DNA of 37,406 nt from Acidaminobacter sp. (lineage in GTDB: Bacteria > Bacillota_A > Clostridia > Peptostreptococcales > Acidaminobacteraceae). Within the stretch, counting starts at the first letter, position 1, and each line of letters begins with the position of its first letter. Below the pieces are notes generated by a model. The model was not told the DNA's origin, searched no databases, and saw only the letters and a list, made by a program, of their open reading frames with translations. The DNA lies in NCBI GenBank assembly GCA_009881125.1, contig WXFH01000051.1:1-37406 (forward strand), written 5' to 3'. A program made the position numbers and the translations under genes. This document shows, one piece after another, positions 418 through 36,149 of the stretch.

Positions 418-3006
418 CTAAGCGAAAACCTTGGCGGCGACGCTGACACCCGCGCGGGCGTCCCGACAAAAATCATCTGCGCCTATGGTCTTGGCGTAGC
501 TTTCCGTGAGGACGGCGCCGCCTACCATGATCCGGATGGGTGCCCCGGTCGCCCGCAGCGCCACAATCGTCTCCTCCATGCTGGACACCGTCGTGGTCAT
601 GAGGGCGCTGAGGCCCACCAATTGAATGTTCTCCGCCACCGCTGTACTGACGACTTTCTCTACCGGCACGTCCCGCCCCAGATCCAGCACATCATAGCCA
701 TAGCTCTCCAGCAGCACCTTGACGAGGTTTTTGCCAATGTCGTGCACATCCCCCTGTACCGTGGCCAGGAGAACCCGCCCCTTGGAGGTCATAGCCTCAG
801 AGGACTCAGAGAGCTTCGCCCGGATCAGCTCAAAAGCAGCCGTCACGGTTTCCGCCGCCCGGATCAGCTGCGGCAGGAAGATCACTTTCGCCTCGTACCG
901 CTGCCCAATCGCGTCCAGCGCCGGAATCAGGTGAAGGTCCACCACATCCAGAGGCGGCGTGGTCTCAAGCAGCACCTTGGTGCGCGCCAGAATCACGTCT
1001 TTTTGGCCTTCCAGCAGCAGCCGCTCAAAGCTGTCCGCAGGCAGGGCGTTTGCCGATGGTCGCCCGCCAGCACCCTGAGATGCCCCAGCCGCAGTCGATA
1101 CAACCGTCGTCACCGAAGAAGGAGGTACCGCAGCCGCTGCACCGCTGCCATTCGTCAATTGCCCAATCAGCGCCGCCGCCTGGGCCGCAGAAGCGTGAGC
1201 CGCCGCGAGTACAGCGTCCTTTGCGTCCGAATCCTGCTTTGCCTGGTCCGCTTTTTCGTTTTGATAATCAATGTAGGCCACCGCCCCCTGGTCTTGATTG
1301 GCCAGCACGCGGAACGCCATCAGCGTATCCATGATGCCCTCCGCACCTGGATCGATGATCACCGCATCCAGTCCGCTGGTCAGCGCCATGGCGAAATAGG
1401 TGCGGTTGATCAGCGCCCGGTAAGGCAGGCCATAGGAGACGTTGGAAAGGCCCAGGGTCGTCAGCGCGCGGGTCGTCGTCTTGACCGCCCGGATCCCCTT
1501 CAAAGTCTCCATAACCGCAGCCTGCTGAGCAGACGCCGTCAGAACGAGACAGTCGATCATCAGCCGGCTCTCGTCAATGCCGTAAGTGGCAGCCGTGTCA
1601 ATCAGCTTGCGGGCGACGGCCATGCGGCCATCGGCTGTTTCAGGGATCCCGTTTTCATCCAGACACAAGGCGACTATATAAGCGCCGTATTTCTTCGCTA
1701 TCGGGAAAATCTTTTCCATGGAGGAGGGCTTGCCGTTGACTGAGTTGATGATGGCCACGCCGCTGTAGAGCCGGAGGGCACGCTCCAGCACAGCCGGCTT
1801 GGTGGAGTCAAACTGGAGAGGCGCCTCGATCAACCCGTTGAAGGCCTCGATGATCTCGCTCATGACCGCCATTTCATCCACAGCGGGCAGGGAGGTGCAG
1901 ACATCCAGTACTTCAGCCCCATGGTTGATCTGGTCGAAGGCTTCCTTGATCGCCGCAGAAGAATTTCCAGCCAAAAACTGTGCTTTAAGGCCCTTGTTGC
2001 CGGACGGGTTGATCTTCTCACCCACCAGCGTGAACTTGCCCGTCAAAGCCACCTTTTGCTGAGCAGAGCAAACATAATCCCCGCGCTCTGCAGCAGGCGC
2101 CGGGCGATAATCCCCGCGAAGGCCGTTCAGCGCCTGAATAAATTCCGGTGTCGTGCCGCAGCAGCCGCCTATAATTTTGACGCCGCCCTGGACAAAGCGT
2201 TTGCCAAAGTCAGCGAAGGTCGCCGCGTCAACGGAAAACTCCGTGCGGCCGCTGACGGATACCGGCAGTCCCGCATTCGCCTGGACCATCACCGGTACCT
2301 TGGCGAATGCCAGGATCCGCTGAATGATGGGCTCCAGCTCTTCAGGACCTAAGGAGCAGTTGACGCCTATGGCATCTATGCCGAGGGCTTCCAGGGAAAG
2401 GATCATGATTTCGGGGTCCGTCCCGGTGAGGGTGCGGCCGTCATCCGCAAAAGTCATGGTCGCGAAGACCGGCAGGCTTGAATTTTCCTTGGCCGCCAGG
2501 ACCGCAGCCCGGGTTTCCCCAAGGTCTGACATGGTCTCGATCAGGATGAGGTCTGCGCCGGTTGCCACGCCGGCGACGATTTGCTCTTTAAAATACTCGT
2601 AGGCACCATCAAAATCGAGGGCACCAATAGGTTTCATCATTTTCCCAATTGGACCGAGATCCAGAGCGATCAGGGCTTGCCGCTCACCGCGGGCAGCCTT
2701 GGCGTTCTCCACCGCCGCCGTGACTACCTCTGTCACCGAATAGCCGCTGGTGGACAGTTTGTAAGCGTTGGCGCCAAAGGTATTGGTCGTGATCACGTCA
2801 GATCCGGCCTCCAGATACTCACGGTGAATTCTTTGGATCAGCGCCGGATCCACAAGGTTTAATGCCTCCGGCAGCGTCCCGGGTTTCATGCCGTAGCGCT
2901 GGAGCATAGTGCCCATGGCGCCGTCGAAAATCATCAAATGCTCAGGGGCAAAAAGCGCCGTGAATGCAGCTGATGAAGTGTTATGTAGTTCGCTCAAAAA
3001 AATCAC
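418..3006 (-). CDS. metH: Cobalamin-dependent methionine synthase without reactivation domain
   Basis: Transfers the methyl group of 5-methyl-THF through methylcobalamin to homocysteine. Three modules are visible in 862 residues: a homocysteine/zinc domain (about 25-295, with Cys217 in GVNCS and Cys282-Cys283 in GGCCGTT), a pterin-binding barrel (about 325-590, GEKINPSGNKG), and a cobalamin cap and Rossmann domain (about 665-862) with DVHDIGKN, whose His755 is the expected cobalt ligand. The usual C-terminal AdoMet reactivation domain is missing and is supplied by the separate upstream gene. A low-complexity Ala/Ser/Gly/Thr linker near 625-665 contains a copy of the TGCCGATGGTC repeat. The annotated GTG start lies only 1 nt after GAGGA, so the TTG three codons on (2995-2997) may be the true start. 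Last gene of the SAM-riboswitch operon. Confidence 0.95.
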   Translation of the reverse strand: MIFLSELHNTSSAAFTALFAPEHLMIFDGAMGTMLQRYGMKPGTLPEALNLVDPALIQRIHREYLEAGSDVITTNTFGANAYKLSTSGYSVTEVVTAAVENAKAARGERQALIALDLGPIGKMMKPIGALDFDGAYEYFKEQIVAGVATGADLILIETMSDLGETRAAVLAAKENSSLPVFATMTFADDGRTLTGTDPEIMILSLEALGIDAIGVNCSLGPEELEPIIQRILAFAKVPVMVQANAGLPVSVSGRTEFSVDAATFADFGKRFVQGGVKIIGGCCGTTPEFIQALNGLRGDYRPAPAAERGDYVCSAQQKVALTGKFTLVGEKINPSGNKGLKAQFLAGNSSAAIKEAFDQINHGAEVLDVCTSLPAVDEMAVMSEIIEAFNGLIEAPLQFDSTKPAVLERALRLYSGVAIINSVNGKPSSMEKIFPIAKKYGAYIVALCLDENGIPETADGRMAVARKLIDTAATYGIDESRLMIDCLVLTASAQQAAVMETLKGIRAVKTTTRALTTLGLSNVSYGLPYRALINRTYFAMALTSGLDAVIIDPGAEGIMDTLMAFRVLANQDQGAVAYIDYQNEKADQAKQDSDAKDAVLAAAHASAAQAAALIGQLTNGSGAAAAVPPSSVTTVVSTAAGASQGAGGRPSANALPADSFERLLLEGQKDVILARTKVLLETTPPLDVVDLHLIPALDAIGQRYEAKVIFLPQLIRAAETVTAAFELIRAKLSESSEAMTSKGRVLLATVQGDVHDIGKNLVKVLLESYGYDVLDLGRDVPVEKVVSTAVAENIQLVGLSALMTTTVSSMEETIVALRATGAPIRIMVGGAVLTESYAKTIGADDFCRDARAGVSVAAKVFA

Positions 3007-3059
3007 ATCCTCAGATTATTTTAATCGTTGTATTATCTCACTGTTTAAGTCGTTGATTT

Positions 3060-3090
3060 ATTATACCTCATTTCGAGCTGACACTGGCAA
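3060..3090 (-). promoter_or_regulatory. Possible internal promoter for metH
   Basis: On the minus strand TTGCCA and TATAAT are separated by 19 bp in the 97-bp gap before metH. The reactivation gene ends in a GC-rich segment followed by six T, which may be a weak terminator. The spacer is longer than ideal, so this is tentative. Confidence 0.3.
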
Positions 3091-3103
3091 AAAAGACGCC
3101 CGC

Positions 3104-3775
3104 TTACCGGCGGCGCGTACACGTCTCCTTCAGCGGGCAGAGGTCACAGCTTTCAAGGCCGCAGCGGTGAGGTTTGGCCGATGGTGTCGTTTCTTCCCCC
3201 AGTACCTTGGGCAGCACCCCCAGAATCGCCACCACGCTTTTTCGAGGTGTCAGGAGGTAACTGTCGCTTAGGGAGACGCCAATGCGCTTGTGGGCCACCA
3301 GGGCCTCCAGAATGGCCTTCTGAATGGTCAGGGACAGGTCGCCGTAACCGGGACTGTAGCGAAAGGTCAGGTCACCGGCACGGCTGCGGATTTCGGCCTC
3401 GCATTTGTCGCACCAGGCCTCCGTTAAGGCCGAAGCGCAGGCGTCCGCGATCAGGCCGGCGGTGGGGGACAGATGGCTCTTTAAAGTAATCAGTCGTTCC
3501 GCCTGGGGGCCCAGCGTGCAGGCCATGAGGTAAACGGTGTCGCAGGGTGCCAGCAGCTTCGCGATGTCCTTTCCGAGAAGGGGCTCCGACAGCCCTTGGA
3601 GCCAGATCCCCTCGGCTGTCTTCTTTTCGACGGGGAAGGGGTTATAAATCCATCGGCCAACCAGCTTTGCTTCAAGCTCGGACGAGAGAGCCTCGACTTC
3701 AGCGAGGGTCTGGGGGTCGGCCTGTTCGGGCTCGCGGATGCCCAGGTACCGAAGGACTTCGTCGCGATTGATCAC
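3104..3775 (-). CDS. Methionine synthase reactivation protein (stand-alone AdoMet-binding domain)
   Basis: A 223-residue protein matching the vitamin-B12-dependent methionine synthase activation domain. This domain binds AdoMet and reductively remethylates cob(II)alamin in MetH. The diagnostic stretch RYSPGYGDLSL, followed by a Gln-rich helix and the SDSYLLTPRKSV segment, is present. The C-terminus is cysteine-rich (CGLESCDLCPLKETC), which could bind Zn or an Fe-S cluster; this is a guess from spacing. The variable segment just before it, TPSAKP, is encoded by a near copy of the TGCCGATGGTC repeat. The GTG start lies 1 nt after the metF stop, with GAGGG inside the metF 3' end as Shine-Dalgarno site, so the two genes are translationally coupled. 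It completes the split MetH downstream. Confidence 0.92.
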   Translation of the reverse strand: MINRDEVLRYLGIREPEQADPQTLAEVEALSSELEAKLVGRWIYNPFPVEKKTAEGIWLQGLSEPLLGKDIAKLLAPCDTVYLMACTLGPQAERLITLKSHLSPTAGLIADACASALTEAWCDKCEAEIRSRAGDLTFRYSPGYGDLSLTIQKAILEALVAHKRIGVSLSDSYLLTPRKSVVAILGVLPKVLGEETTPSAKPHRCGLESCDLCPLKETCTRRR

Positions 3776-5405: not shown

Positions 5406-5448
5406 GTTGGAAGAAAAAGGAAAAGCGGCAGAATTGGAGGGCTTTCAA

Positions 5449-6684
5449 ATGGCATTACACATGGTTAAAGACAAGGTGACTTATCACGATTTCGTGGACT
5501 TCAAAGCGGCAAAGGAAACACTCAAACCTGTGATCCGTGAAACGCCGCTTATTTTCAGTGAGGCGTTCAGCGAAGAATGCGGCAACCGCGTCTACATAAA
5601 GCCGGAAAACTTGCAGGTCACGGGTGCGTTCAAGATCCGCGGCGCTTTTAATAAAATCAATAAATTGACAGACGAAGAAAAGGCGCGGGGCGTCATTGCG
5701 TCCTCAGCGGGCAACCACGCCCAGGGCGTCGCATTGGCCAGCACCCGACTCGGTGTCAAGTCCACCATAGTGATGCCAAAGACCACACCCATCATCAAGG
5801 TGGAGGCCACGAGAAACTATGGTGCGACTGTCGTGCTCGCTGGCGACTGCTATGATGAAGCATACGATGAAGCTATGCGGCTGCAAAAAGAGCAAAACAG
5901 TGTCTTCATCCATCCTTTTGACGACCTGGATGTGATTGAGGGTCAGGGGACCATCGGCGTGGAGATCCTTGAAGACCTGGAGGATGTGGACGTGGTGCTG
6001 GTGCCTATTGGCGGCGGCGGACTGATCGCGGGCATTGCGCTGGCTATGAAGCAGCTGAAGCCATCCGTAAAAATTGTGGGGGTCGAGCCGGAGGGCGCCA
6101 TGGCTATGAAAGCGTCCGTCAAGCAGGACGAGATCGTGTGCCTGACCCACGTGGATACCATAGCGGACGGCGTTGCCGTCAAGAAACCGGGCAAACTGAC
6201 CTTCGACATCATCCGGGAGTACGTGGATGAAATCGTCACCGTCAGCGACCGCGAAATCATGGAGTCCTTCCTGATGCTGCTCGAAAAGCACAAACTGATC
6301 GCGGAGAACTCCGGGGCAGTCGCGCTGGCGGCGCTCAAGAAGCTTCACGTCTTCAACAAGAACGTCGTCAGCGTCGTCAGCGGCGGCAATATTGACGTGG
6401 TGACCATCTCCACGCTGATCAACAAGGGTCTCGTCTCCCGTGGGCGGCTCTTCTGCTTCAGCGTTGAGCTCCCCGACAAGCCGGGCGAGCTGGTCAGAAT
6501 CTCCGAAGTCTTGGCAAGACTCAATGCCAACGTTATAGGTCTCGACCACAACCAGTTCAAGAATACCGACCGCTTCATGAACGTCGAGCTGGAAGTCACT
6601 TGCGAGACCAGTGGCCATGCCCATATTGATGAAATTCAGCGGGAACTGGCGAAGATTGGGTACAAGGTGAGAAAGGTCTATTAG
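5449..6684 (+). CDS. ilvA: Threonine dehydratase (deaminase) with C-terminal ACT domain
   Basis: PLP enzyme that converts threonine to 2-oxobutyrate, the first step to isoleucine. The chosen ATG (411 residues) has GGAGGG seven bases upstream; an in-frame upstream extension would run through the T-box terminator and is rejected. PLP Lys62 lies in TGAFKIRG, the substrate loop is SSAGNHAQG (85-93), and the phosphate loop is GGGGL (about 188-192). Residues about 330-411 form one ACT-like domain (FSVELPDKPGELVRISEVL). This domain arrangement is shared by biosynthetic and catabolic enzymes of about 400 residues. The isoleucine T-box favours a biosynthetic role. A palindromic repeat begins at the last base of its stop codon. 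Confidence 0.95.
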   Translation: MALHMVKDKVTYHDFVDFKAAKETLKPVIRETPLIFSEAFSEECGNRVYIKPENLQVTGAFKIRGAFNKINKLTDEEKARGVIASSAGNHAQGVALASTRLGVKSTIVMPKTTPIIKVEATRNYGATVVLAGDCYDEAYDEAMRLQKEQNSVFIHPFDDLDVIEGQGTIGVEILEDLEDVDVVLVPIGGGGLIAGIALAMKQLKPSVKIVGVEPEGAMAMKASVKQDEIVCLTHVDTIADGVAVKKPGKLTFDIIREYVDEIVTVSDREIMESFLMLLEKHKLIAENSGAVALAALKKLHVFNKNVVSVVSGGNIDVVTISTLINKGLVSRGRLFCFSVELPDKPGELVRISEVLARLNANVIGLDHNQFKNTDRFMNVELEVTCETSGHAHIDEIQRELAKIGYKVRKVY

Positions 6685-6780
6685 AAACTCGGTGTCAGCG
6701 GCCTTTGGCCTATCGACCCCCAGTTTCACAACAAGAGAAACTCGGTGTCAGCGGCTTTTGGCCTATCGACCCCCGGTTTC
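6684..6780. repeat. Two long-form palindromic repeats after ilvA
   Basis: Elements at 6684-6727 and 6737-6780 are nearly identical 44-bp units: GAAACTCGGTGTCAGCGGC, a short T-rich centre, then CCTATCGACCCCC and a GTTTC end. The arms are imperfectly complementary and would form a hairpin. The first overlaps the G of the ilvA stop codon. Confidence 0.85.
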
Positions 6781-6790
6781 ACAACAATAA

Positions 6791-6840
6791 AAGAGAGAGC
6801 CTCAGTGAAGCGTCACGCTTTCACCAGGCTCTCTCTTTCG
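6791..6840 (+). terminator. ilvA terminator with nested hairpin
   Basis: GAGAGAGCCT pairs with AGGCTCTCTC, enclosing a second stem (GTGAAGCG with CGCTTTCAC), followed by a T-rich run. It stands between two pairs of palindromic repeats and separates ilvA from the convergent cofE-like gene. Confidence 0.8.
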
Positions 6841-6847
6841 TTTGAGA

Positions 6848-6933
6848 GAAACTCGGTGTCTGACACCAAGTTCCATCTTTCATTTAAAAGAAACCGGGTG
6901 TCAGCGGCCTTTGGCCTATCGACCCCCAGTTTC
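6848..6933. repeat. Short- and long-form palindromic repeats near the cofE-like 3' end
   Basis: 6848-6874 is the short form, with GGTGTCTGACACC at its centre. 6890-6933 is a third copy of the long form. On the minus strand the latter is followed by TTTCTTTT and may terminate the nhaC-cofE transcript. Confidence 0.8.
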
Positions 6934-7715: not shown

Positions 7716-9236
7716 TCATTTGGATCCCTCGTTGTGCCGATGGTCACCTATCGGCAGAGCACTGGAAGCGATGCGCTGGATCATAGTCGCTTCAGGCGCG
7801 CCAAGCCGTATTGTTTTATGTAAGCCTCTGGCTGCGAAAAAGAGTGTGATGGCGGGCAAAAGCCAGCTGGATAAAGCGTAGGGCAGGTAGGCCGCGGTAG
7901 AGACGCCGGTGACGGTGGCCACCAGGATGCCGTTGATATTCCACGGAATGAGCGGCACGCACACCACGCCGGTATCGCTGATGGTCCGGGCCAGCAAACG
8001 GCGGTCGATCTTGAAAGCGTCGTACTTTTCTTTAAAGTAATTGCCGGTGATCAGCGTGGTCATGGTTTGATTGCCGGAGACCAGACTGACCAGCAGACTG
8101 ATCATGCCCGTAGAGAAGATCAGGTGGCCTCTGGTGCCGAGATGTCTTGAGGCTCTGTCCAGAAGCGGCTCGAGACAGCGAATCAACTGAAACAGACCGC
8201 TCAGGGCAGAGGCAATGGCTATGAGCAGCAGCGCGCCCATCATAGAGGTCAGGCCGCTGCCTGAAAACAAGGCGCCAAGGGGACCGCTGCCTTCGAGACC
8301 GGTGAGCAGAGGCATCCACTCGAAGCCGCCCCCAAGGAGGCCGCTCCCAATGCTGAGGACGAGTGCCGCGCCAAGACTGACGACCATGTTCTGGCGCAGG
8401 ACGAGCACGAAAAACAGCATCACTGCGGGTGGAATCAGCTGGGCGGGAGCGATTTCAAAGCTCTGACCCAAGAGCTGCCTGAGGGCGTCAAGGGACTGGG
8501 CCTGTGAATCGCTGGCAGAGGGTCCGAATAAACCATAGGATATGGTTGTCATTATAAACACTGGAAGGGTGGATGACAACATATAAACGAAATTTCCTTT
8601 CAAATCCGTACCGGTAATTTCCGAGACGAGGTTGAAATTGCTCGACATGAGGGAGGTTCGGTCGCCCGTGTAGGCCCCTGAAACCACGGCGCCCACGATC
8701 ATGGCCTCGTTCAGCCCAATGCTTCTGGCAATCGCTATGAAGACCAGTCCTACGGTAGAGGTGGTCCCAATGCCGGAGCCTAGGATCATGGACACGGCGA
8801 CGCTGGACAGATAAGCTGCCACCGCCAGATTAAAGCCGGAAAACGCGTCAATGGAATAGGCCATTAAGGAGGCCAGGACCCCCGTCTGCATCCACAGGGG
8901 AATGATCATGCCCACCAGGGCCAGCATCATAAGCACCGTTTTGACTTTGTAGATACTGTCGAGCGACGCTCGAACCAGCGGCCTGACGGAATAGCCGGCG
9001 TGCAGGGCGAGGCCGAGGAAGATCAGGTAACCGGTCACCAGCCCCCAGTAGATGGGCTTTCCGAACGCTATGGACGCGCCCAGGGCTGAGATCGTGATGA
9101 GCAGGCCCAGGCTGACGACCAGGGTGGACAGGGGCTTTGGCCCGGTGGGATCAAGTGCGCTTTTTGCCGATGGCACCGGATCTGACATTCCAGAGGTTTG
9201 ATGAACAGTTTGCTTCGGTGACGGATGATCAGGCAT
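7716..9236 (-). CDS. nhaC: Na+/H+ antiporter, NhaC family
   Basis: A 506-residue hydrophobic protein with about 11-12 predicted membrane segments. It shows NhaC-type signatures: IILGSGIGTTSTVGL-like loop near 150-165, GAYTGDRTSLMSS near 185-200, SGNQTMTTLITG near 390 and the segment DTGVVCVPLIPWNINGI near 420. It would exchange Na+ for protons or another organic cation or anion at the membrane; the specific substrate of NhaC paralogues cannot be read from sequence. The N-terminal cytoplasmic tail (PVPSAKS) contains one copy of the TGCCGATGGTC repeat, and the last 15 residues (SALPIGDHRH..) are encoded by an inverted pair of it. ATG start with AGGAGG upstream. Transcribed divergently from phoB. 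Confidence 0.88.
   Translation of the reverse strand: MPDHPSPKQTVHQTSGMSDPVPSAKSALDPTGPKPLSTLVVSLGLLITISALGASIAFGKPIYWGLVTGYLIFLGLALHAGYSVRPLVRASLDSIYKVKTVLMMLALVGMIIPLWMQTGVLASLMAYSIDAFSGFNLAVAAYLSSVAVSMILGSGIGTTSTVGLVFIAIARSIGLNEAMIVGAVVSGAYTGDRTSLMSSNFNLVSEITGTDLKGNFVYMLSSTLPVFIMTTISYGLFGPSASDSQAQSLDALRQLLGQSFEIAPAQLIPPAVMLFFVLVLRQNMVVSLGAALVLSIGSGLLGGGFEWMPLLTGLEGSGPLGALFSGSGLTSMMGALLLIAIASALSGLFQLIRCLEPLLDRASRHLGTRGHLIFSTGMISLLVSLVSGNQTMTTLITGNYFKEKYDAFKIDRRLLARTISDTGVVCVPLIPWNINGILVATVTGVSTAAYLPYALSSWLLPAITLFFAARGLHKTIRLGAPEATMIQRIASSALPIGDHRHNEGSK
7735..7757. repeat. Inverted pair of the TGCCGATGGTC motif in the nhaC 3' end
   Basis: TGCCGAT (7735-7741) and ATCGGCA are separated by a few bases and form a small hairpin. 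The sequence is translated as the C-terminal tail of the antiporter. Confidence 0.8.
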
Positions 9237-10180: not shown

Positions 10181-11956
10181 ATGCAAAGAAGATTGTTTGC
10201 CATTTTTTCGTTTATCATTATTCTCACGGTGCTGTTTATGGCACTGATGTCCAACAGCCTGATCCGCCAAAGTTACATGAACGGCATTGAAGAGCGTCTG
10301 AGCTCGGATGCCAGGTACATTTCGCGCCTCCTTGAAATGGAAGGGGACGACCTTGGCAATGTGACGCCGGAGTTTCAGACTCTGTCCAGGGATCTGGACT
10401 TTCGGATTACTTTGATTGCGGCGGATGGGGTTGTCCTCTACGATTCCAGCCAGCCGGCGGAGACCCTTGAAAATCATGGGAGCCGCGCTGAGGTTGTAAT
10501 TGCCATGGCGGGTCAGGTGGGGCGGAGCAGCAGGGCTTCAGCGACCATCGGCACAGAGCTTTTATATGTGGCGGTGCCGAATCCGGCGCCGGACAGCGAG
10601 GTGGCTGTCATTAGACTGGCGGTGCCGCTGACCTCGGTGGATCAGTATACGCGCAATTTGATCCAGATTGTCATTGGGGTCGCGGTGATTGGCCTCGTGG
10701 CCGCGCTGACCCTGGGGTACCGCTGGATCGTGTCCCTGATGCGGCCAATCAAGGAAATGAGCAGCGCCACCAAGCGCATTGCGTCGGGGTATTACGGCGA
10801 GAAGGTTTATGCCGACTCAGGGGATGAGTTTGGGGAGCTGGCCAGGAGTTTCAACACCATGAGTGATGAGCTGAAGGTCAAGCTGGAGGAGACCGGTGCC
10901 CAGAATACCCAAATGAACGCCATCCTGTCCAGCGTGCTCAATCCGGTTATTGCGGTGGACCGGGAGCTTCGGATTCTGTTTATCAACGGCTCCGCCAAGA
11001 AGATTTTTGGTGCTGATGGTCTCGAGCCTAAAGGCCGCTACATCCTGGACTTCGTGCGCAACTCCAAAATGGTGGAGACGCTTACGGGCTTGATGAAAAC
11101 CAACGAGCCGACCGTCCGGGAGATTGAACTGACCGCCGCCGGCCGGGACGTCTACAACGTCTACGCGAATCCAATCCGGGAATTCAAGGAGGGTGGCCGC
11201 AATATTGGTGTCGTCATGATTTTCCAGGATATTACGGAAATACGCCAGCTGGAAACCATGCGCAAGCAGTTTGTCGCCAACGTCTCACACGAGCTGAAGA
11301 CGCCGCTGACCAGCATCAAGGGGTTTGTGGAAACCTTGCGGGGCGGTGCAGTGGACGACGTCAGGGTACGGGACAGATTCCTGGAAATTGTCGAGTCTGA
11401 AGCCACGCGCCTCAGCGAGCTGATCGATGACCTGCTGATCCTGACGGACATTGAGCGCAGGACCGAGGATGGTGTCTATGAGCCAATTGATTTAAGGAAG
11501 ACCATCTGTGATGTGGTGCTTATGCTCGAAGACAGCGCGGCGACAAAGTCCATTGCCATTCAGAAGCTGCTGCCGGAGACGCTGCCAATTCTTCATGGCA
11601 ACCCGAACTGGTTTAAGCAGATGGTGATCAATTTAATTGACAACGCCGTCAAGTACACGCCGGAGGGCGGTCATGTGACGGTCAAGGTGACTTTTGACGC
11701 TAAGGACATCACCCTTTCGGTCCGCGACAACGGCATTGGGATAGAGCGAGACCACCTTGGGCGGCTGTTTGAGCGTTTCTACCGGGTGGACAAAGCCCGC
11801 TCCAGAGATGTAGGGGGTACCGGCCTGGGGCTGGCCATTGTGAAGCATATTGTCCTGTCTTTTGGCGGGGTGATCTCCGTCAAGTCAGAGCCGGGCAAGG
11901 GCAGTGAATTTACCGCGAAGCTTCCAAGGACGGATGCGGGGCAGCGAGTGCTCTAG
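10181..11956 (+). CDS. phoR: Sensor histidine kinase, PhoR type
   Basis: A membrane kinase of 591 residues. TM1 at about 6-25, an extracytoplasmic region to about 160, TM2 at about 162-186, HAMP (about 186-240), PAS (about 245-350), dimerisation and phosphoacceptor domain with His370 in VSHELKTPL, and an ATPase domain with N box (NLIDNAVKYTPEGG), G1 (DNGIGI), F box (LFERFYRVD) and G2 (GTGLGLAI). Domain order matches PhoR/WalK kinases. AGGAG precedes the ATG. It is downstream of and co-oriented with the response regulator, its likely partner. A full copy of the TGCCGATGGTC repeat falls in the sensor domain (SATIGT, near residue 120). Confidence 0.92.
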   Translation: MQRRLFAIFSFIIILTVLFMALMSNSLIRQSYMNGIEERLSSDARYISRLLEMEGDDLGNVTPEFQTLSRDLDFRITLIAADGVVLYDSSQPAETLENHGSRAEVVIAMAGQVGRSSRASATIGTELLYVAVPNPAPDSEVAVIRLAVPLTSVDQYTRNLIQIVIGVAVIGLVAALTLGYRWIVSLMRPIKEMSSATKRIASGYYGEKVYADSGDEFGELARSFNTMSDELKVKLEETGAQNTQMNAILSSVLNPVIAVDRELRILFINGSAKKIFGADGLEPKGRYILDFVRNSKMVETLTGLMKTNEPTVREIELTAAGRDVYNVYANPIREFKEGGRNIGVVMIFQDITEIRQLETMRKQFVANVSHELKTPLTSIKGFVETLRGGAVDDVRVRDRFLEIVESEATRLSELIDDLLILTDIERRTEDGVYEPIDLRKTICDVVLMLEDSAATKSIAIQKLLPETLPILHGNPNWFKQMVINLIDNAVKYTPEGGHVTVKVTFDAKDITLSVRDNGIGIERDHLGRLFERFYRVDKARSRDVGGTGLGLAIVKHIVLSFGGVISVKSEPGKGSEFTAKLPRTDAGQRVL

Positions 11957-14121: not shown

Positions 14122-14292
14122 GAAACGCGACATTCATAAGTTAGAAAGGTCAGTCGTTGAGGTGGATGCTGAAGGTGGGGAAGAGTGACCATCGGCTAAA
14201 GCTCTGGGAAATTTTGCGACTGGCCTGATTTTTAAAAACTTTAGCCCCGCCCACCCCGGACGGGGAATATGAGACGAAAGACTGGTGACACA

Positions 14293-15544: not shown

Positions 15545-15603
15545 AGGTACGGCTGCCGATGGTTTGGCGCAGACCGCATTGAGCAAGTAAATCCTGAAAG
15601 AGT

Positions 15604-16508: not shown

Positions 16509-17726
16509 TTGAAAATAAACGAAACCAGAGTCAGCCGCCTGGTGGACTATGTCCGCGGCGTACTGAAAAAACAGGACGGCAAGTCGCTGTACCTCGAGTT
16601 CCGCTCAGATCTGGAAGCTGTGACCCCTCAGGAGGTCTTTGAAATTATGAACCACGTCTGGTCCTCCGGCACAGGCTATGATGACATTCTGAGCGTCCTC
16701 GACAAGATCATCAACGTGTTCTATCATGCGCTCAGCAGCTACACCTGGCCAAAACCAGAACCCAATTCCTTTATTGATCTTATGCTGCGGGAAAATCAAG
16801 CCATGAACGCGAAGATGGACCAGGTCAAGGCTGTGCTCAAGCAGGGGAAAACCCTCGAGAACCGTGAAAAGCTCCTCGAGACCCTGACTCCGCTCCTTGA
16901 GTTTGAGGCCCATTATCTCAAAAAGGAAAACATCCTCTTTCCAGTCATGGAGCAGCGCATGCCGCGCTTCGAGGGTGTCGGCATTATGTGGGCACTCCAC
17001 GACAACACCCGTGCCAACCTCAAACATGTCATTCAGATGCTGACCGAGGGCACCGCGTCTGAGCAGGAAATTAATGCCGAGCTTGGCCAGCTCTTCTTCA
17101 ATATGATTGGCCTCGACCAGAAGGAATCCCTGATCCTCTATCCCTGTGCCTCAGAGGTCCTTGATCCCGAAACCTTCAAAGCCATGACCCAGCAAAGCTT
17201 TGAGTATGGCTTCCCGTTTCTCGATCCCCAGACCCTTCCAGAGCCTGTTTCTGCCGATGGTCTCAGTGCCCCGCACCCCACCCCCAATTTTCAAGGTCTT
17301 GAAATCAACACCGGCACCGGCACCCTCAGCGCCGACCAGCTGGTGATGATGCTCAACGCGCTGCCGGTGGATATTACCTACGTAGACGAAAACGATAAAG
17401 TCAGATATTTCTCCAGACCAAAGGATCGCTTTTTCCCAAGGTCGAACGCGATTATAGGAAGGGACGTGCGCTACTGCCACCCGCCCCAAAGCGTCGACAA
17501 AGTCCTTGACATAGTCCAGGCCTTCAAAGAAGGTCACCAGGACACCGCCAGCTTCTGGATCGACCTCAGAGGCAGAAAAGTCCTGATCCAGTATTTTGCC
17601 CTGCGAACCCCTGGTGCTTCTGCCGATGGTCCCCCAACCTACCGCGGCGTCCTGGAAGTCAGCCAGGACATCACGGACATCCAGAAAATGGAGGGACAGA
17701 GGCGCCTGCTGTCCTGGGAAGAGTAG
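16509..17726 (+). CDS. DUF438-hemerythrin-PAS protein
   Basis: About 405 residues in three parts. An N-terminal DUF438 segment (about 5-80), a hemerythrin-like helical region (about 85-210, with FEAHYLKKENILFP and WALHDNTRANLKH supplying His/Glu ligand candidates), and a C-terminal PAS domain (about 275-400; VDITYVDENDKVRYFSRPKDRFFPR, ending in LEVSQDITDIQKMEG). Such proteins are thought to sense oxygen, NO or redox state through the diiron site, but no output domain is present. The segments joining and within the PAS part contain two SADG insertions encoded by TGCCGATGGTC copies. TTG start with AAGGAG eight bases before; the GTG at 16500 overlaps the site. Confidence 0.85.
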   Translation: MKINETRVSRLVDYVRGVLKKQDGKSLYLEFRSDLEAVTPQEVFEIMNHVWSSGTGYDDILSVLDKIINVFYHALSSYTWPKPEPNSFIDLMLRENQAMNAKMDQVKAVLKQGKTLENREKLLETLTPLLEFEAHYLKKENILFPVMEQRMPRFEGVGIMWALHDNTRANLKHVIQMLTEGTASEQEINAELGQLFFNMIGLDQKESLILYPCASEVLDPETFKAMTQQSFEYGFPFLDPQTLPEPVSADGLSAPHPTPNFQGLEINTGTGTLSADQLVMMLNALPVDITYVDENDKVRYFSRPKDRFFPRSNAIIGRDVRYCHPPQSVDKVLDIVQAFKEGHQDTASFWIDLRGRKVLIQYFALRTPGASADGPPTYRGVLEVSQDITDIQKMEGQRRLLSWEE

Positions 17727-19325: not shown

Positions 19326-19392
19326 ATTTTGCCGATGGTTACGGTTCACACATGGTTATTTATTTAAATCCACACTGAGAGAGTGAGGAGGG

Positions 19393-23482: not shown

Positions 23483-24736
23483 CTAGTCGTACATTAAGAA
23501 ATATTTGACGTCTTGAACGAAGTTTTGTGACTTCATTTCAACGATTTTTTCGTAGAGCTCAAGCTCGTCCTCGGTTTCGACGACGAAAAACACGTTGTCG
23601 AGATCATTGAGGCGGTAGAGCTTCAGTGCGTGGATTGGGAAGGACCCGAGAACCAGGTCGATGGTCTCCGGCATGCTGGTGACCTTCAGGCGAACCAGCC
23701 ATTTGGAGCGGCGTGAGTAGTATTTGGACAGCTTGTAGTTGGTGTCGTCGTTGAGAGGCAGGACCATGTCCGTTTTGCCGGTCAGAACGTCGAGGAGATC
23801 CCCGTAGACCGCGCTGGCAGTTGGAAACTTGCCGGCGCCTCTGCCGGTGAACATGACTTTGCCCACTGCGTCGCCTTCTACTTCAATAGCGTTGAATTCA
23901 TTGTCGATGTGGCCAAGGGCGCTGTGCTTATGGACCAGTGTCGGTCTGACCGAGCAGTGAATCTCGCTGCCGTCCCGGGTGCTGACTGCCAGCAGCTTGA
24001 TCTTGCGGTCGATGTCCCGGGCGTTCTGGATGTCCGTCTTGGTGACGCCGTCCACGCCTTCGACTTTGATTTCTTTCCAGCGGATCATTTTGTCGTAGGC
24101 AATGGAGGAGAGGATGCAGAGCTTTCTGGCGGCGTCGTAGCCTTTGACGTCCGCGGTCGGGTCAGCTTCTGCAAAGCCGGCTTCCTGGGCCATTTTCAAA
24201 GTGACGTTGTACTCCAGGTTTTCCTCGTACATCTTCGTGAGGATGAAGTTGGTCGTACCGTTGACTATGCCGGCTATAGAGCCGATGCGGTTTCCTTTAA
24301 GGGACTCCCGGAAGGGCTTGATGACCGGGATGCCGCCGCCCACCGCCGCTTCGAAGCTGACGCTGGCGTTGTTTGTGCGTGCGATTTCCATGAGCTCCAG
24401 GCCATACTCGGCGATCAGATCCTTGTTGGCAGTCACGACGCTGACGCCGCGTTCGAGGAGTGTTCTGACGTACGTATTCGCAGGTTCGATGCCGCCCATG
24501 ACCTCGATGACGATGTCCGGCTGCTGCGCCAGGATCTCGTCGAAGGAGGTGGTCAGGAGACCATCGGCACCCCTGCCCTTGTACTTCTCGAGGTCTCTGA
24601 CGAGGATGCCCGTCAGCTGCATTTCGTTGTGATACTTGCTTTTAAGGTAGGCGCGGTTGCGCTCGATCAGTTCCATGACGCCTGAGCCCACCGTGCCGAA
24701 CCCCAACATAACCACTCGTTTCAAATTGTTCACCAC
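23483..24736 (-). CDS. hom: Homoserine dehydrogenase
   Basis: Reduces aspartate semialdehyde to homoserine. About 417 residues: N-terminal Rossmann fold ([17 protein letters not shown]), catalytic domain with [12 protein letters not shown] and [20 protein letters not shown], and a C-terminal ACT-like region (about 345-417) for threonine feedback. Two tandem GTG codons open the frame, but they overlap the AGGTG site. A TTG at 24722-24724 fits both spacing and the usual short family N-terminus and may be the real start. The variable segment GADGLLTT carries a TGCCGATGGTC copy. Preceded by the UPF0735 gene at 15 nt. Confidence 0.96.
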
Positions 24737-25191: not shown

Positions 25192-25451
25192 GGTGATCCT
25201 CCTTCGGTTTCTCCTCTTGCTTGCTTTGCGTTTACGTTTGTGCTTGGTGATTGGTGATTAATGTTTAGAGAGTGTTGTTTGGTGGTGCGTTAGTTTTATT
25301 GTTTTTGTGGTGACCGCCGTGCGCGGACATTAAAATGATGTTTAAATTAGTGTCCGCCGATGGTCTTGTAAAGTGTATTTCAATTCATAGGAAATTGTAT
25401 TTTAAAACAAACATATTCGCTGTTTCTCGTACAACTGTCCGCTTGAGGGAT
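25192..25451 (-). promoter_or_regulatory. 260-nt leader of the threonine operon
   Basis: The transcript from the strong promoter at 25452-25481 would have about 255 nt before the first gene. It holds a stem (GCGGACA / TGTCCGC, 25323-25357), a TGCCGATGGTC-like site at 25355-25365 and a second promoter-like sequence TTTACA-17-TAATTT (25344-25372). No T-box motif, no intrinsic terminator and no Thr-rich leader peptide with a start codon were found. Confidence 0.5.
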
Positions 25452-25765: not shown

Positions 25766-25835
25766 GGAAGACGGTGTTAGCGCTAAAGCCTATCGAATCC
25801 TGCTTCTGTGATTAGGTTGGGCGACCATCGGCAAA
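25766..25835. repeat. Diverged palindromic repeat and TGCCGATGGTC site
   Basis: 25766-25808 is a long-form element (GGTGTTAGCGC, CCTATCGA) with GGAAG/CTTC arms. A reverse-strand TGCCGATGGTC copy follows at 25823-25833. Confidence 0.6.
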
Positions 25836-28787: not shown

Positions 28788-31295
28788 TTGCCAAAAAAGA
28801 AGCATAACCAAGATGAGCCACATCAGATTGACCTCGAAGAGACGTTTGATCTTGAGGCTTTAGAAGAAGATAATTTTGCCGATGGTGACGGTACCGCAGG
28901 CGACTTTGACGAGGAACGACCATCGGCAGAGGCACTGGATTTTGAAGAGGACGAGGATGAGGGCATAGCTGCGGAAGATGACATCTTGACTGACACCGAG
29001 CAGCCCGTCAAGTCTGAATCCAGGAAAAAACGGGGCAGCACCAAGGCGAAAAAAGCCAGGGCCGGCAGCACCTCAAGCCGCATCCTGGGGACCTACAACC
29101 CGCCGGTGCCCCAGCCCATCACCCAGACTCTGGAGCACAATTACATGCCTTACGCCATGAGCGTCATCCTTTCCAGGGCCATCCCGGAGATCGACGGCTT
29201 CAAGCCCTCCCACCGGAAGCTCCTGTACACCATGTACAAGATGAAGCTCCTGGACGGGCCGCGGACAAAATCCGCCAACGTCGTGGGCCAGACCATGAAG
29301 CTCAACCCTCACGGGGACCAGGCCATCTACGCGACCATGGTGCGGCTGACCCGGGGCTATGATGCCCTGCTTCAGCCTTATGTCGACTCCAAGGGCAACT
29401 TTGGCAAGGTGACCTCCCGGGACATGCGCTTCGCGGCGTCCAGGTATACGGAGGTCAAGCTCGACGCGATCTGCAATGAGATTTTCAAGGATATTGACAA
29501 AAACACCGTGGACTTTGTGGACAACTACGATGGCCGCATGAAAGAGCCAACCCTGCTGCCGACGGTTTTCCCCAACGTGCTGGTCAGTGCGAACCGGGGC
29601 ATTGCAGTAGGCATGGCGAGCAATATCTGTTCCTTCAACCTGCGGGAGGTCTGCCAGGGGATTATTGAATACCTGAAGGATCCGGCCTTTGATATTTCCA
29701 ATATTTTCACTGGTCCTGATTTCCCTACAGGGGGCTATTTGCTCTACGATGAGCGCCAGATGTCGGAGATCTACCGGACCGGCCAGGGCTCCTTCAAGCT
29801 GCGTGCGAAATATCGCTATGACAAGTCAGAAAATCTGATTGAGATTTATGAAATTCCGTATACTACCACGGTGGAGGCGATTCTGGAAAAGATCGTCGAC
29901 CTGGTGAAGCTGGGCAGAGTCAAGGAGATCAGCGACCTGCGGGACGAGACGGACCTCAGCGGCCTCAAGATTGCCCTGGAGCTGAAGCGGGGCGTCGATC
30001 CGGACGCGCTGATGGCGAAGCTTTACCGCTATACCCCTTGCGAGGACAGCTTTGCCTGCAACTTCAACCTGCTGATCGACGGGCGTCCGGCCGTCACCGG
30101 CGTCAAAGGCATCCTGGGGGCGTGGCTGCGCTTTCGAAAGGACTGTATCCGCCGCCGCCTGAACTACGATCTCGTCAAACTGACGGATAAGCTCCACCTC
30201 CTTTATGGCTTGAAGGCCGTGGTCATGGATATTGACCGGGCGATCCGGATCATTCGGGAGACGGATGAGGACAGCCATGTCGTGCCAAATCTGATGTCCG
30301 CTTTTTATATTGACGAGCTCCAGGCAAATTATGTCGCGGATATCAAGCTCCGGCATCTCAACAGGGAATACGTCCTGGAGCGCTTGACGGAGACTAAAAC
30401 CCTCGAGGAGCAGATTGAAAAGCTTCAGAAGACCCTTGAGAATGAGAAAGAGATCGACAAGATTATCATTTCCGAACAGCAGCAGATCATTAAAAAGTAT
30501 GGCAAGGACCGTCAGACGGAAGTCGTTCATTTGAATGAGGTCAGGGTTCATGAGGAGAAGTCCGTGATTGACGCCTTCCCGCTGAAGCTCTTCCTGACGG
30601 AGCATGGCTATTTGAAGAAGGTCTCACTGGCCTCCTTGAGAATGGCCAGCAGCCACAAGCTCAAGGATGAGGACCGCATAGTCCAGGCCCTGGATGGAAC
30701 GAATGGCGACGACATCCTGTTCTTCACGGACAAGTGCCAGGTGTATAAGTTCAAGGCCCATGAGCTGGATGAGCACAAGGCGTCTACTCTGGGGCACTAT
30801 GTCTACAATCTGATTGAAACTGAGCCGGATGAAAAGGTCCTATACATTGTCAACACCTCGGATTATGAGGGCGAGATGGTCTTTGCCTTTGAAAACGGCA
30901 AAGTCGCCAAAGTGCCGCTCAAGTCCTATGAGACCAAAACTTACCGCAAGAAGCTCATCAAGGCATACGCCGATGAGTCCCGGCCAGTCGGCATCTTCTT
31001 CGCCCGGGAGGGCGGCGAACTCTTCCTGGTACGCCGTGCAGGGGCAGATGCTTATACGGCGCTGACCTTTGATCTGGGGCTTGTGGCGCAGAAGGCGTCT
31101 AAAAATACGGTTGGCGTGCAGTGCGTCCGGCTCAAAAAAGGCAGTCATGTGGATTACGCTATGATGACGGAGCCGGGGAACGATGTGGTGCTTGCGTATA
31201 AGGTTTCTAGTGTACCGGCATCCGGGAAGGTTTTGGATCCAATGACTCTGCTGGGGATTCGCGAGAAACTGGAAGTCCCTCTGGAAGAGGCTTAG
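28788..31295 (+). CDS. parC: Type II topoisomerase subunit A (divergent ParC/GyrA) with acidic N-terminal extension
   Basis: About 835 residues. The breakage-rejoining domain starts near residue 110 (NYMPYAMSVILSRAIPEIDGFKPSHRKLLY) and has the catalytic Tyr in AASRYTEVKL. A coiled-coil-like stretch follows (about 540-570) and a C-terminal beta-pinwheel-like region. The first 100 residues are not part of the family: they are highly acidic, then basic (KKRGSTKAKKARAG), and contain an inverted pair of the TGCCGATGGTC repeat (FADGDG and RPSAEA). TTG start at 28788 chosen six bases after GAGGTG, which overlaps the in-frame GTG at 28779. Co-transcribed with the subunit B gene. Confidence 0.9.
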   Translation: MPKKKHNQDEPHQIDLEETFDLEALEEDNFADGDGTAGDFDEERPSAEALDFEEDEDEGIAAEDDILTDTEQPVKSESRKKRGSTKAKKARAGSTSSRILGTYNPPVPQPITQTLEHNYMPYAMSVILSRAIPEIDGFKPSHRKLLYTMYKMKLLDGPRTKSANVVGQTMKLNPHGDQAIYATMVRLTRGYDALLQPYVDSKGNFGKVTSRDMRFAASRYTEVKLDAICNEIFKDIDKNTVDFVDNYDGRMKEPTLLPTVFPNVLVSANRGIAVGMASNICSFNLREVCQGIIEYLKDPAFDISNIFTGPDFPTGGYLLYDERQMSEIYRTGQGSFKLRAKYRYDKSENLIEIYEIPYTTTVEAILEKIVDLVKLGRVKEISDLRDETDLSGLKIALELKRGVDPDALMAKLYRYTPCEDSFACNFNLLIDGRPAVTGVKGILGAWLRFRKDCIRRRLNYDLVKLTDKLHLLYGLKAVVMDIDRAIRIIRETDEDSHVVPNLMSAFYIDELQANYVADIKLRHLNREYVLERLTETKTLEEQIEKLQKTLENEKEIDKIIISEQQQIIKKYGKDRQTEVVHLNEVRVHEEKSVIDAFPLKLFLTEHGYLKKVSLASLRMASSHKLKDEDRIVQALDGTNGDDILFFTDKCQVYKFKAHELDEHKASTLGHYVYNLIETEPDEKVLYIVNTSDYEGEMVFAFENGKVAKVPLKSYETKTYRKKLIKAYADESRPVGIFFAREGGELFLVRRAGADAYTALTFDLGLVAQKASKNTVGVQCVRLKKGSHVDYAMMTEPGNDVVLAYKVSSVPASGKVLDPMTLLGIREKLEVPLEEA
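28874..28930. repeat. Inverted pair of TGCCGATGGTC motifs inside parC
   Basis: TTTTGCCGATGGT at 28874-28886 and ACCATCGGCAGA at 28919-28930 face each other across 32 bases and lie in the acidic N-terminal extension. Confidence 0.85.
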
Positions 31296-31298
31296 GAG

Positions 31299-31391
31299 GA
31301 AACTGGGGTTGATAGGCGCTAGCCGCAGACACCCAGTTTCTCCATTTGGAAACTCGGGGTTGATAGGCGCTAGCCGCAGACACCCAGTTTC
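31299..31391. repeat. Two long-form palindromic repeats after parC
   Basis: 31299-31340 and 31349-31391 are nearly identical, in reverse orientation to those after ilvA. The centre is GGCGCTAGCCGC and the ends are GAAACT and AGTTTC. They begin 3 bp after the parC stop. Confidence 0.88.
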
Positions 31392-31486
31392 TCCATAGAT
31401 GAATGATATGGGATTGCGGTGGATTGCACTTAAGAACATTTGAAAAGGTAAAAATTGAAAAAAGAGTAAAAAGATCAATATTTTTC

Positions 31487-31642
31487 TTGATTCTTGCCCC
31501 GTTACTGCGTATGATGGTCTTAAGCGGAGCAGCGGAGGGAAGAAGAGTAGCGTAAGCGTAGCAAATGTTGAATCATGTAGCCGTGATTGAAGAGAAAGGT
31601 TGGGGAAGCAGGCGCAGAGCCAGCTTCCCCTTGTTTTTTTTG
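31487..31642 (+). ncRNA. Possible small RNA between parC and aroE
   Basis: A promoter (TTGATT, 17 bp, TATGAT; 31487-31515) is followed by a strong terminator: GGGGAAGC (31602-31609) with GCTTCCCC (31623-31630), then TTGTTTTTTTT. The implied transcript is about 120 nt, has no ORF with a ribosome binding site, and has an inner ATCATG/CGTGAT stem. No known RNA family was recognised. It might also be an attenuated leader for aroE. Confidence 0.5.
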
Positions 31643-31657
31643 TGGCGGCGCGGGCGA

Positions 31658-31732
31658 GAAACTGGGTGTCTGACACCAAGTTTCTAAGTGAAACTCGGTG
31701 TCAGCGGCTAGCGCCTATCAACCCCCAGTTTC
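31658..31732. repeat. Short- and long-form palindromic repeats before aroE
   Basis: 31658-31684 is a 27-bp short form around GGTGTCTGACACC. 31690-31732 is a long form with GCGGCTAGCGCC centre, now in the ilvA-side orientation. Confidence 0.85.
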
Positions 31733-31775
31733 TCTCACCTCTGCAACTTCTATAAGACCTGCTCACATTAATTAC

Positions 31776-35256: not shown

Positions 35257-35300
35257 CACCATCGGCAGAGCACTCTTTTAAAGGCTTCTGCCGATGGTCA
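35257..35300. repeat. Stem-loop of inverted TGCCGATGGTC motifs after aroC
   Basis: ACCATCGGCAGA (35259-35270) is perfectly complementary to TCTGCCGATGGT (35287-35298) across a 16-nt loop. Without a T tract it is a poor classical terminator. It begins 11 bp after the aroC stop. Confidence 0.85.
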
Positions 35301-35380
35301 CCAAAGTCACCCGCCACGCCCCAAGCACCCGGTCACACACCCGGCGGCGGGGCGCTGTTTTTATGGAAAGGACCTGATTC

Positions 35381-36007
35381 ATGAAAAAGCTGATCGATGG
35401 TATTGTGAAATTCAGAAAGGACGACTTCGACACACACAAAGAGCTGTTCTCCAGCCTGAAGCGGGAGCAAAAGCCCCACACGCTGTTTATCAGCTGCTCA
35501 GACTCGCGCATAGACCCGAACCTCATTACTAAGACTCTGCCAGGCGAATTATTTATCATACGCAATATCGCCAACCTGATCCCGTCTTACAGATACACGG
35601 CTGAATTTGTGGCGACCACTTCAGCGGTGGAATACGCCGTCCTGGCGCTCAACGTCGAAAATATAATTGTTTGCGGACATTCCAACTGCGGTGGCTGCGC
35701 TGCGGGGCTCAATCTGCCGAAGACGCTGATGACCATGCCCCACACCAGGAAATGGCTGGAGCTGGCAAGACCCGCCAGGGAGAAAGTCAACAGAACCATG
35801 ACCAGCGAAGGACCTGAGGCCAGGGAGTGGATGATGGAGCAGTACAATGTCATGGAGCAGCTCAAGAATTTGTGGAGTTATCCGTACATTCGTGAGCGTG
35901 TTTTGGCTGGAACCTTGAATTTAAGCGGATGGTACTACATTATTGAAACCGGGGAAGTCTTTATTTACGACAGGGAAGAGGGCGCGTTTGTGCTGGCGAA
36001 CGGGTAA
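35381..36007 (+). CDS. can: Beta-class carbonic anhydrase
   Basis: Interconverts CO2 and bicarbonate in the cytoplasm. 208 residues. The zinc site Cys39-x-Asp41-x-Arg43 (SCSDSRIDP) and His100-x2-Cys103 (CGHSNCGG) is complete, and RNIANLIP and TTSAVEYAVLAL follow the family pattern. ATG start with AAAGGA upstream. Own terminator, so monocistronic. Confidence 0.95.
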   Translation: MKKLIDGIVKFRKDDFDTHKELFSSLKREQKPHTLFISCSDSRIDPNLITKTLPGELFIIRNIANLIPSYRYTAEFVATTSAVEYAVLALNVENIIVCGHSNCGGCAAGLNLPKTLMTMPHTRKWLELARPAREKVNRTMTSEGPEAREWMMEQYNVMEQLKNLWSYPYIRERVLAGTLNLSGWYYIIETGEVFIYDREEGAFVLANG

Positions 36008-36080
36008 GGGAGCCGGTGCGCCTGGATTTATGCCTGTTGAACCTGTCGTCCAACAAACTAAGGCGTAGTAAACTCAAAAG

Positions 36081-36149
36081 AAAGGCCACTGTGGCCGCGG
36101 AAATCGTTAAAAAGCGATTTGCCGATGGTCACCGTGGCCTTCTTTTTTG
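36081..36149 (+). terminator. Terminator after the carbonic anhydrase, containing a TGCCGATGGTC copy
   Basis: AAGGCCAC pairs with GTGGCCTT, with an inner AAATCG / CGATTT stem, then CTTTTTT. The repeat motif (36119-36130) forms part of the 3' side. Confidence 0.8.

What the first reader, a model, noticed from the sequence alone, without database searches (positions are those of the whole stretch)
1047..36131. An 11-bp word, TGCCGATGGTC, is scattered through the whole window like an uptake or genome-signature sequence
I find about 18 exact or one-to-two-mismatch copies, in both orientations: 1051, 3176, 7735, 9165, 10552(-), 14187(-), 15554, 17252, 17621, 19330, 24559(-), 25355, 25823(-), 28877, 28918(-), 35257(-), 35289, 36120. 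A fixed 10-mer is expected about 0.07 times on both strands in 37 kb. Copies lie in spacers, terminators and leaders, and in variable protein linkers where they are read as SADG, RPSA/TPSA or TIGT. Both coding and noncoding locations, with singletons and inverted pairs, recall Neisseria DUS or Haemophilus USS, or cyanobacterial HIP1. No such word is known to me for Clostridia. Function is inference; the enrichment is seen directly.
Basis: partly seen in the sequence, partly recalled or inferred. Interest (0 to 1): 0.85.

Follow-up and report, generated by a model that had tools for sequence, protein, structure and literature searches.

The report
Genome-wide uptake-like word in Acidaminobacter
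A short DNA word is repeated hundreds of times across the genomes of one genus of anaerobic bacteria, and it looks like the tags that two other bacterial families use to recognise and take up DNA of their own kind, though uptake itself has not been tested.

Summary
The window holds 10 exact and 19 at-most-one-mismatch copies of TGCCGATGGTC (shuffles: mean 0.65 for the latter). The window is Acidaminobacter (Bacillota, Clostridia). The nearest held genome has 436 exact copies, A. hydrogenoformans 438; the backwards control gives 1 and 3, and 59 other genomes of family and order 0-10 each. The true unit is a 9-base core, GCCGATGGT, in a polar element of about 35 bp. It is equal on both replication strands, four times denser between genes, forms inverted but hardly direct close pairs, and changes mostly by point mutation. 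These traits fit DUS/USS uptake sequences; Chi, KOPS, HIP1 and mobile repeats fit badly. Against: the gene-end bias of Pasteurellaceae is absent, and depletion in acquired DNA could not be tested. Both species carry ComEC, a ComEA-like protein and DprA; A. hydrogenoformans has a type IV pilus operon, which a contig end cuts in the other genome. No uptake experiment is known to me and the reader protein is unknown. Best reading: an independently evolved uptake sequence in Clostridia (0.6). My searches found it unreported in the held library.

The parts
1052..1060 (+). core GCCGATGGT, inside CDS 418-2934(-), methionine-synthase-like (S-methyl_trans/Pterin_bind/B12-binding)
   Evidence: one core base differs in the near-identical G001 contig C21
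3177..3185 (+). core, inside CDS 3104-3775(-)
5950..5958 (-). core, inside CDS 5407-6684(+)
7736..7744 (+). core, inside CDS 7716-9188(-), Na+/H+ antiporter family
10544..10552 (-). core, inside CDS 10181-11956(+), sensor histidine kinase
14188..14196 (-). core, intergenic, strong flanks
15555..15563 (+). core, intergenic, weak flanks; one core base differs at the same place in G001:C21
17253..17261 (+). core, inside CDS 16509-17726(+) (Hemerythrin + PAS)
17622..17630 (+). core, inside CDS 16509-17726(+)
19331..19339 (+). core, intergenic
24560..24568 (-). core, inside CDS 23483-24736(-), homoserine dehydrogenase
25356..25364 (+). core, intergenic, weak flanks
25824..25832 (-). core, intergenic, strong flanks
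28878..28886 (+). core, first arm of an inverted pair in the N-terminal extension of a DNA gyrase/topoisomerase IV subunit A gene (28788-31295)
28919..28927 (-). core, second arm of that inverted pair
35258..35266 (-). core, intergenic, first arm of an inverted pair
35290..35298 (+). core, intergenic, second arm of that pair, strong flanks
36121..36129 (+). core, intergenic

Best explanation
GCCGATGGT with its T-rich upstream and C/A-rich downstream flanks is a genus-specific DNA uptake sequence. Proposed mechanism: a surface DNA receptor, perhaps a minor pilin of the type IV pilus, binds the element on double-stranded DNA; pilus retraction brings the DNA through the wall to ComEA; ComEC passes one strand inward; DprA helps load it for recombination. 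Because DNA with the word enters more often, alleles that gain it by mutation are copied into the population preferentially, so the word accumulates wherever gene function tolerates it. Shown here: abundance, genus restriction among the genomes searched, sharp core plus weaker polar flanks, absence of strand bias, intergenic enrichment, inverted pairs, turnover mostly by substitution, excess conservation between the two species, and the presence of ComEC, a ComEA-like protein, DprA and (in one species) a type IV pilus operon. Inferred: that a protein reads the word, that this happens at uptake, and which protein does so.
For: Abundance and restriction: 436 and 438 exact copies in the two Acidaminobacter species, 0-10 in 59 other family/order genomes; a scan of genome contigs (one genome for each of 84,980 species, by the tool's description) for close inverted pairs gave 35 loci, 29 of them Acidaminobacter and 6 single loci in six other genera or families. 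Motif: 351 cores in 1,177,943 bases of the nearest genome; of 193 one-mismatch cores 36 have good flanks, of 205 perfect cores 130 (model built on those 205); the flank model holds on 146 new sites (55% above the background 99th percentile; downstream part alone p 5e-53), and the main flank positions recur in genes read either way and between genes. Replication strand, called from contig GC skew: 164 leading, 187 lagging, p 0.24. Intergenic 0.83/kb, coding 0.21/kb. Close pairs (<80 bp): 19 inverted, 1 direct, about 5 expected in all. Between the species, of 49 well-aligned cores of G001:C2, 17 are conserved, 26 differ by 1-5 substitutions and 6 involve gaps; 38 more could not be aligned well. 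USS likewise evolve by point mutation (PMC7811141, passage). Conservation exceeds composition-matched 9-mers: coding sites with flank identity of at least 0.6, 13 of 40 against 13 of 145; intergenic, 10 of 23 against 0 of 8. Machinery: ComEC, ComEA-like HHH_3 protein and DprA in both species; PilM, two T2SSE ATPases (one over the PilT cut-off), PilC and three N-methyl pilins in A. hydrogenoformans.
Against: No uptake or transformation data; my searches with this genus name (listing, 69) showed none. The same machinery (ComEC in 39 of 41 family genomes) exists in relatives without the word. N-methyl pilins are not found in G001 and its T2SSF hits are weak, although its contig C47 ends inside the pilus operon. 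The bias to gene ends reported for Pasteurellaceae is absent (36 of 212 in the outer tenths, p 0.30). Between the window and G001:C21, 2 of 162 core bases differ, no fewer than in the surroundings. Density rises with GC more than permuted words do, and word-poor stretches include one with parA/parB-like genes, so a chromosome-position effect is not excluded. Depletion in newly acquired DNA could not be tested: no unaligned segment of 2 kb or more was found. The only pilin that at first looked basic is not.
Confidence: 0.6

Rival explanations
1. A chromosome-organisation or nucleoid-protein site (Noc-, SlmA- or matS-like): a DNA-binding protein reads the word to shape or segregate the chromosome.
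For: Sharp long motif; density differs several-fold between regions and correlates with GC (rho 0.69 against 0.33 for permuted words); sparse in one stretch with parA/parB-like genes (my reading of the proteins).
Against: The polar, non-palindromic element and its hundreds of copies are unlike the short palindromic sites I recall; gaps between copies look exponential (CV 0.99).
Confidence: 0.15
2. A recombination or translocation signal such as Chi or KOPS.
For: Genome-wide abundance of a non-palindromic word.
Against: Leading:lagging 164:187, whereas such signals are strand-biased (recalled); inverted pairs; an element of about 35 bp is far longer; four-fold denser between genes.
Confidence: 0.06
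3. A HIP1-like signature tied to a DNA methyltransferase or restriction-modification system.
For: Genus-restricted abundance; HIP1 is linked to orphan methyltransferases (PMC4390886, start of abstract in the listing).
Against: The core is not a palindrome and has polar flanks. No methylome was available and methyltransferases were not searched.
Confidence: 0.08
4. Remains of a mobile repeat (REP, MITE or similar) spread by transposition.
For: Inverted pairs resemble REP hairpins; the genome carries other repeat families; 6 of 49 aligned sites involve gaps.
Against: Flanks are unlike one another in the 30 copies read; 26 of 49 aligned sites differ by substitutions alone; 212 of 351 lie in genes, in all six frame/orientation classes.
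Confidence: 0.04
5. A genus-wide recognised word of another, unknown function (for example DNA packaging for export or a defence self-mark).
For: The sequence evidence shows recognition and spread; none of it shows uptake.
Against: No system of that kind known to me produces this set of features.
Confidence: 0.07

Closest known systems
Uptake signal sequence (USS) of Haemophilus and other Pasteurellaceae
   Same: 9-bp core plus weaker flanks; hundreds to thousands of copies; evolves by point mutation (PMC7811141, passages)
   Different: Unrelated sequence (USS core AAGTGCGGT; here GCCGATGGT); flanks T-rich and C/A-rich instead of AT tracts; no bias to gene ends; in Clostridia; uptake not shown
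DNA uptake sequence (DUS) of Neisseriaceae with receptor ComP
   Same: Dispersed 10-12-mer, genic and intergenic, inverted pairs (PMC3630211, passages)
   Different: Sequence differs (ATGCCGTCTGAA; the shared TGCCG is probably chance); no dialect seen in samples of five sister genera; ComP homologues were not searched
HIP1 of cyanobacteria
   Same: Abundant lineage-specific word
   Different: HIP1 is the palindrome GCGATCGC (PMC4390886, listing); this core is not a palindrome and is polar
Chi / KOPS
   Same: Non-palindromic, genome-wide
   Different: Those are strand-biased (recalled); this is not

Membership tests
DNA uptake sequence (DUS/USS type) | Hundreds to thousands of copies, far above expectation | tested here: met
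   436 and 438 exact 11-mers, backwards control 1 and 3; 351 cores in 1.18 Mb
DNA uptake sequence (DUS/USS type) | Sharp core with weaker flanking preferences | tested here: met
   held-out test
DNA uptake sequence (DUS/USS type) | Arises by point mutation, not insertion | tested here: met
   of 87 cores 49 aligned well: 17 conserved, 26 substituted, 6 gapped
DNA uptake sequence (DUS/USS type) | Enriched between genes and in inverted pairs | tested here: met
   0.83 against 0.21 per kb; 19 inverted, 1 direct close pairs
DNA uptake sequence (DUS/USS type) | Intragenic copies biased to gene ends (Pasteurellaceae only, PMC2346458 abstract) | tested here: not met
   36 of 212 in the outer tenths, p 0.30; a trait of one family, not of the kind
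DNA uptake sequence (DUS/USS type) | Under-represented in newly acquired DNA | tested here: inconclusive
   no unaligned segment of 2 kb or more in the compared region
DNA uptake sequence (DUS/USS type) | Competence machinery in the same genome | tested here: met
   ComEC, ComEA-like, DprA in both species; T4P operon in A. hydrogenoformans; in G001 no N-methyl pilin found, contig end inside the operon
DNA uptake sequence (DUS/USS type) | Cells take up DNA with the word preferentially | not testable with these tools
   needs an uptake experiment
DNA uptake sequence (DUS/USS type) | A word-specific surface receptor | not tested
   three N-methyl pilins exist; one has no relative but itself in the protein search but is acidic as annotated (pI 5.24)
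Neisserial DUS or Haemophilus USS as such | The family's own sequence | tested here: not met
   core GCCGATGGT against ATGCCGTCTGAA and AAGTGCGGT (PMC5031613 passages)
HIP1 | Palindromic octamer | tested here: not met
   non-palindromic polar core
Chi / KOPS | Bias to the leading strand | tested here: not met
   164 leading, 187 lagging, strand called from GC skew of contigs
REP/MITE repeats | Insertion with shared flanking sequence | tested here: not met

The most novel reading that the evidence does not exclude
A third, independently evolved DNA-uptake-sequence system, the first in Bacillota, in which a part of a type IV pilus reads a polar element of about 35 bp and has by molecular drive filled the genome with copies of its core (about 950 if the sampled 1.18 Mb of G001 is typical).
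Probability: 0.48. Interest if true: 0.93.

Novelty: new variant of a known kind. Interest (0 to 1): 0.82.

Why it matters
The papers I saw passages of confine sequence-specific DNA uptake to two families, Pasteurellaceae and Neisseriaceae (PMC5031613; PMC7811141). An independent case in Clostridia would show that such self-recognition evolves repeatedly and outside those two families, would point to natural transformation in this genus, and would give an independent receptor with which to test whether molecular drive or selection for self-DNA fills genomes with such words.

Tried and rejected
Chance and composition: rejected by shuffles, a Markov model, the backwards word and permuted words. 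Mobile repeat: disfavoured. Strand-biased signals: disfavoured. Phage origin: TTTGCCGATGGTCAC in viral contigs gave 87 stretches with one match each, about what I reckon chance would give; no viral array of the word among them. Dialects in sister genera: samples of five genera (120-484 kb each) gave no word as widespread as this one (at most 11 two-kilobase bins in 484 kb of G014 and 9 in 160 kb of G013, against 40 in 160 kb of G001); the contexts I read of leading words in G014, G013 and G017 were mostly longer repeats; most words listed for G009 and G035 were not inspected. Absence of the pilus in G001 first looked like evidence against uptake, but the contig ends inside the operon. A basic minor pilin as reader: one search gave pI 8.96 for the 143-residue frame, but the annotated 123-residue protein has pI 5.24, so the charge argument is dropped and the odds of the novel case went from 0.5 to 0.48. 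Its search found no relative but itself, so no structure was predicted. Gene-end bias: negative; acquired-DNA depletion: untestable. Literature searches; Acidaminobacter with 'uptake sequence' 0 papers, the four-term Firmicutes search 0 papers.

Gene calls in scripts come from a home-made hexamer gene finder, so coding fractions are approximate. In one search, 67 of 87 word sites and 160 of 180 control sites could be placed; 4 coding word sites (2 conserved) and 7 coding control sites (0 conserved) with flank identity below 0.6 are left out of the 40 and 145.
Full report
Observation. Ten copies in the window are exact and 19 have at most one mismatch, against a mean of 0.65 and a maximum of 3 in 100 dinucleotide shuffles; a third-order Markov model expects 0.02 exact copies.

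Where it comes from. The window's own assembly is not held. Window 17400-37399 matches G001 contig C21 at 99% and G002 contig C8 in pieces at 71-84%. G001 and G002 correspond to Acidaminobacter sp. MAG4 and A. hydrogenoformans DSM 2784 (inferred); the latter is placed in Bacillota, Clostridia, Peptostreptococcales, Acidaminobacteraceae. The ten window proteins I scanned match ordinary chromosomal families such as methionine synthase domains, MTHFR, homoserine dehydrogenase and a topoisomerase subunit.

Genome-wide count. G001 has 223+213 exact copies and G002 224+214; the backwards word gives 1 and 3. The other 59 genomes of the family and order searched have 0-10. A scan of the genome collection for close inverted pairs gave 35 loci: 29 Acidaminobacter and 6 single loci in other, unrelated records. 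That scan asks for a pair of exact words, so a lineage with scattered single words or a changed word would be missed.

What the unit is. In 400 kb of G001, 43 of 54 one-mismatch copies differ at the first T or the last C: the core is GCCGATGGT. Among 351 cores in 1,177,943 bases, intergenic copies show T before the core (0.59, 0.82, 0.55, 0.73 at -4 to -1), then C, A, C at +9 to +11, and a C/A-rich, G-poor stretch from about +15 to +25. The flank model built on 205 sites separates 146 new sites from background (mean 4.64 against -5.35). The main positions are favoured in genes read with the word, against it, and between genes; a period of three in coding copies may partly reflect codon structure, so the intergenic profile is the cleaner one (inference).

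Distribution. 212 of 351 cores lie in predicted genes although 86% of the sequence is coding; density is 0.83/kb between genes and 0.21/kb inside. Within genes frame 0 is commonest (142 of 212), then frame 2 (59) and frame 1 (11), as if limited by what proteins tolerate (inference). There is no leading-strand preference (164:187, p 0.24). Close pairs are inverted 19 times and direct once. Intergenic density is highest between convergent genes (1.39/kb, against 0.81 co-directional and 0.69 divergent). Density rises with GC more strongly than for permuted words (rho 0.69 against 0.33). The longest gaps I looked at outside C2 hold ordinary-looking genes, one with parA/parB-like proteins (my reading of the sequences). 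I cannot separate constraint from chromosome position without a closed genome.

Evolution. G001:C2 and G002:C25 are collinear (alignment pieces of roughly 73-86% identity). Of 87 cores in C2, 20 had no partner region and 18 were poorly aligned; of the remaining 49, 17 are conserved, 26 differ by 1-5 substitutions and 6 involve gaps. In the reverse direction, of 58 cores 15 had no partner, 14 were poor, 15 conserved, 8 substituted, 6 gapped. Coding sites with flank identity of at least 0.6 keep the core in 13 of 40 cases against 13 of 145 permuted controls; intergenic sites of any flank identity in 10 of 23 against 0 of 8. Between the window and the near-identical G001:C21, 16 of 18 cores are identical and two differ by one base each, about the general divergence, so no extra conservation shows at that distance.

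Machinery. ComEC (PF03772) is present in both species and in 39 of 41 family genomes, a 172-residue ComEA-like HHH_3 frame in both, DprA (PF02481) in both. In A. hydrogenoformans one contig carries PilM, a protein with SLH domains at the PilO position, a T2SSE+MshEN ATPase (PilB by position), a PilT over its family cut-off, PilC, a sigma factor nearest to SigB/F/G but under those cut-offs, and three N-methyl pilins. In G001 the matching contig ends within this operon, which can explain why searches found no N-methyl pilin and only weak T2SSF frames there. One minor pilin has no detectable relative but itself and a sub-threshold similarity to ComGE; as annotated it is acidic (pI 5.24), so it lacks the electropositive mark described for DNA-binding minor pilins (PMC12616744, abstract).

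Interpretation. The set of traits (sharp core, weak polar flanks, both strands, intergenic excess, inverted pairs, substitution turnover) is that of uptake sequences: USS 'evolve by point mutations; i.e. they are not inserted elements' (PMC7811141, passage); DUS sit in permissive regions and in inverted pairs (PMC3630211, passage). Two defining points remain untested: preferential uptake and a receptor. One trait of Pasteurellaceae, bias to gene ends, is absent. I therefore say it works like an uptake sequence with probability 0.6, and do not file it as a DUS or USS, whose sequences it does not share.

Novelty. Papers of which I saw passages confine sequence-specific uptake to two families (PMC5031613; PMC7811141). 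Full-text searches for Acidaminobacter with 'uptake sequence', and for uptake sequences with Firmicutes, natural transformation and overrepresented, gave no paper; the held library lacks most subscription journals.

Noticed in passing
window 26548-26739, also 6677-6941, 20201-20279, 31296-31734: A second abundant repeat family (GTGTCAGACACC / AAACTCGGTGTCTGACACC), partly in arrays of 24-bp period; many related places in G001.
   Followed up: no
window 15384-15544: A 161-bp element with 23-nt inverted ends, 99% identical copy at G001:C2:96627-96787, missing at the matching site of G001:C21: looks like a small mobile element.
   Followed up: partly
window 13021-13366: Tandem duplication of 173 bp, 96% identical, related to an inverted copy at 26288-26407.
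   Followed up: no
L141:5530-6297 and 10355-11548 (A. hydrogenoformans, G002:C32): A sigma factor gene nearest to SigB/F/G sits inside the type IV pilus operon, and the protein at the PilO position carries SLH domains.
   Followed up: partly
G014 (sister genus), L146, L147, L283, L289, L292, L294, L298: A dispersed intergenic repeat of about 40 nt (9 of 11 copies of GCATCGGATA share it) in a 28% GC sample; unidentified.
   Followed up: partly
L287 (G014:C1:1750001-1770000): About 20 kb with 18 same-strand copies of a conserved site at spacings of roughly 0.6-2.3 kb; looks like an integron gene-cassette array with attC-like sites (attC recalled, not tested).
   Followed up: no
window 28788-29180: A topoisomerase subunit A gene begins with some 130 residues before the Pfam domain, holding an inverted pair of the word.
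   Followed up: no
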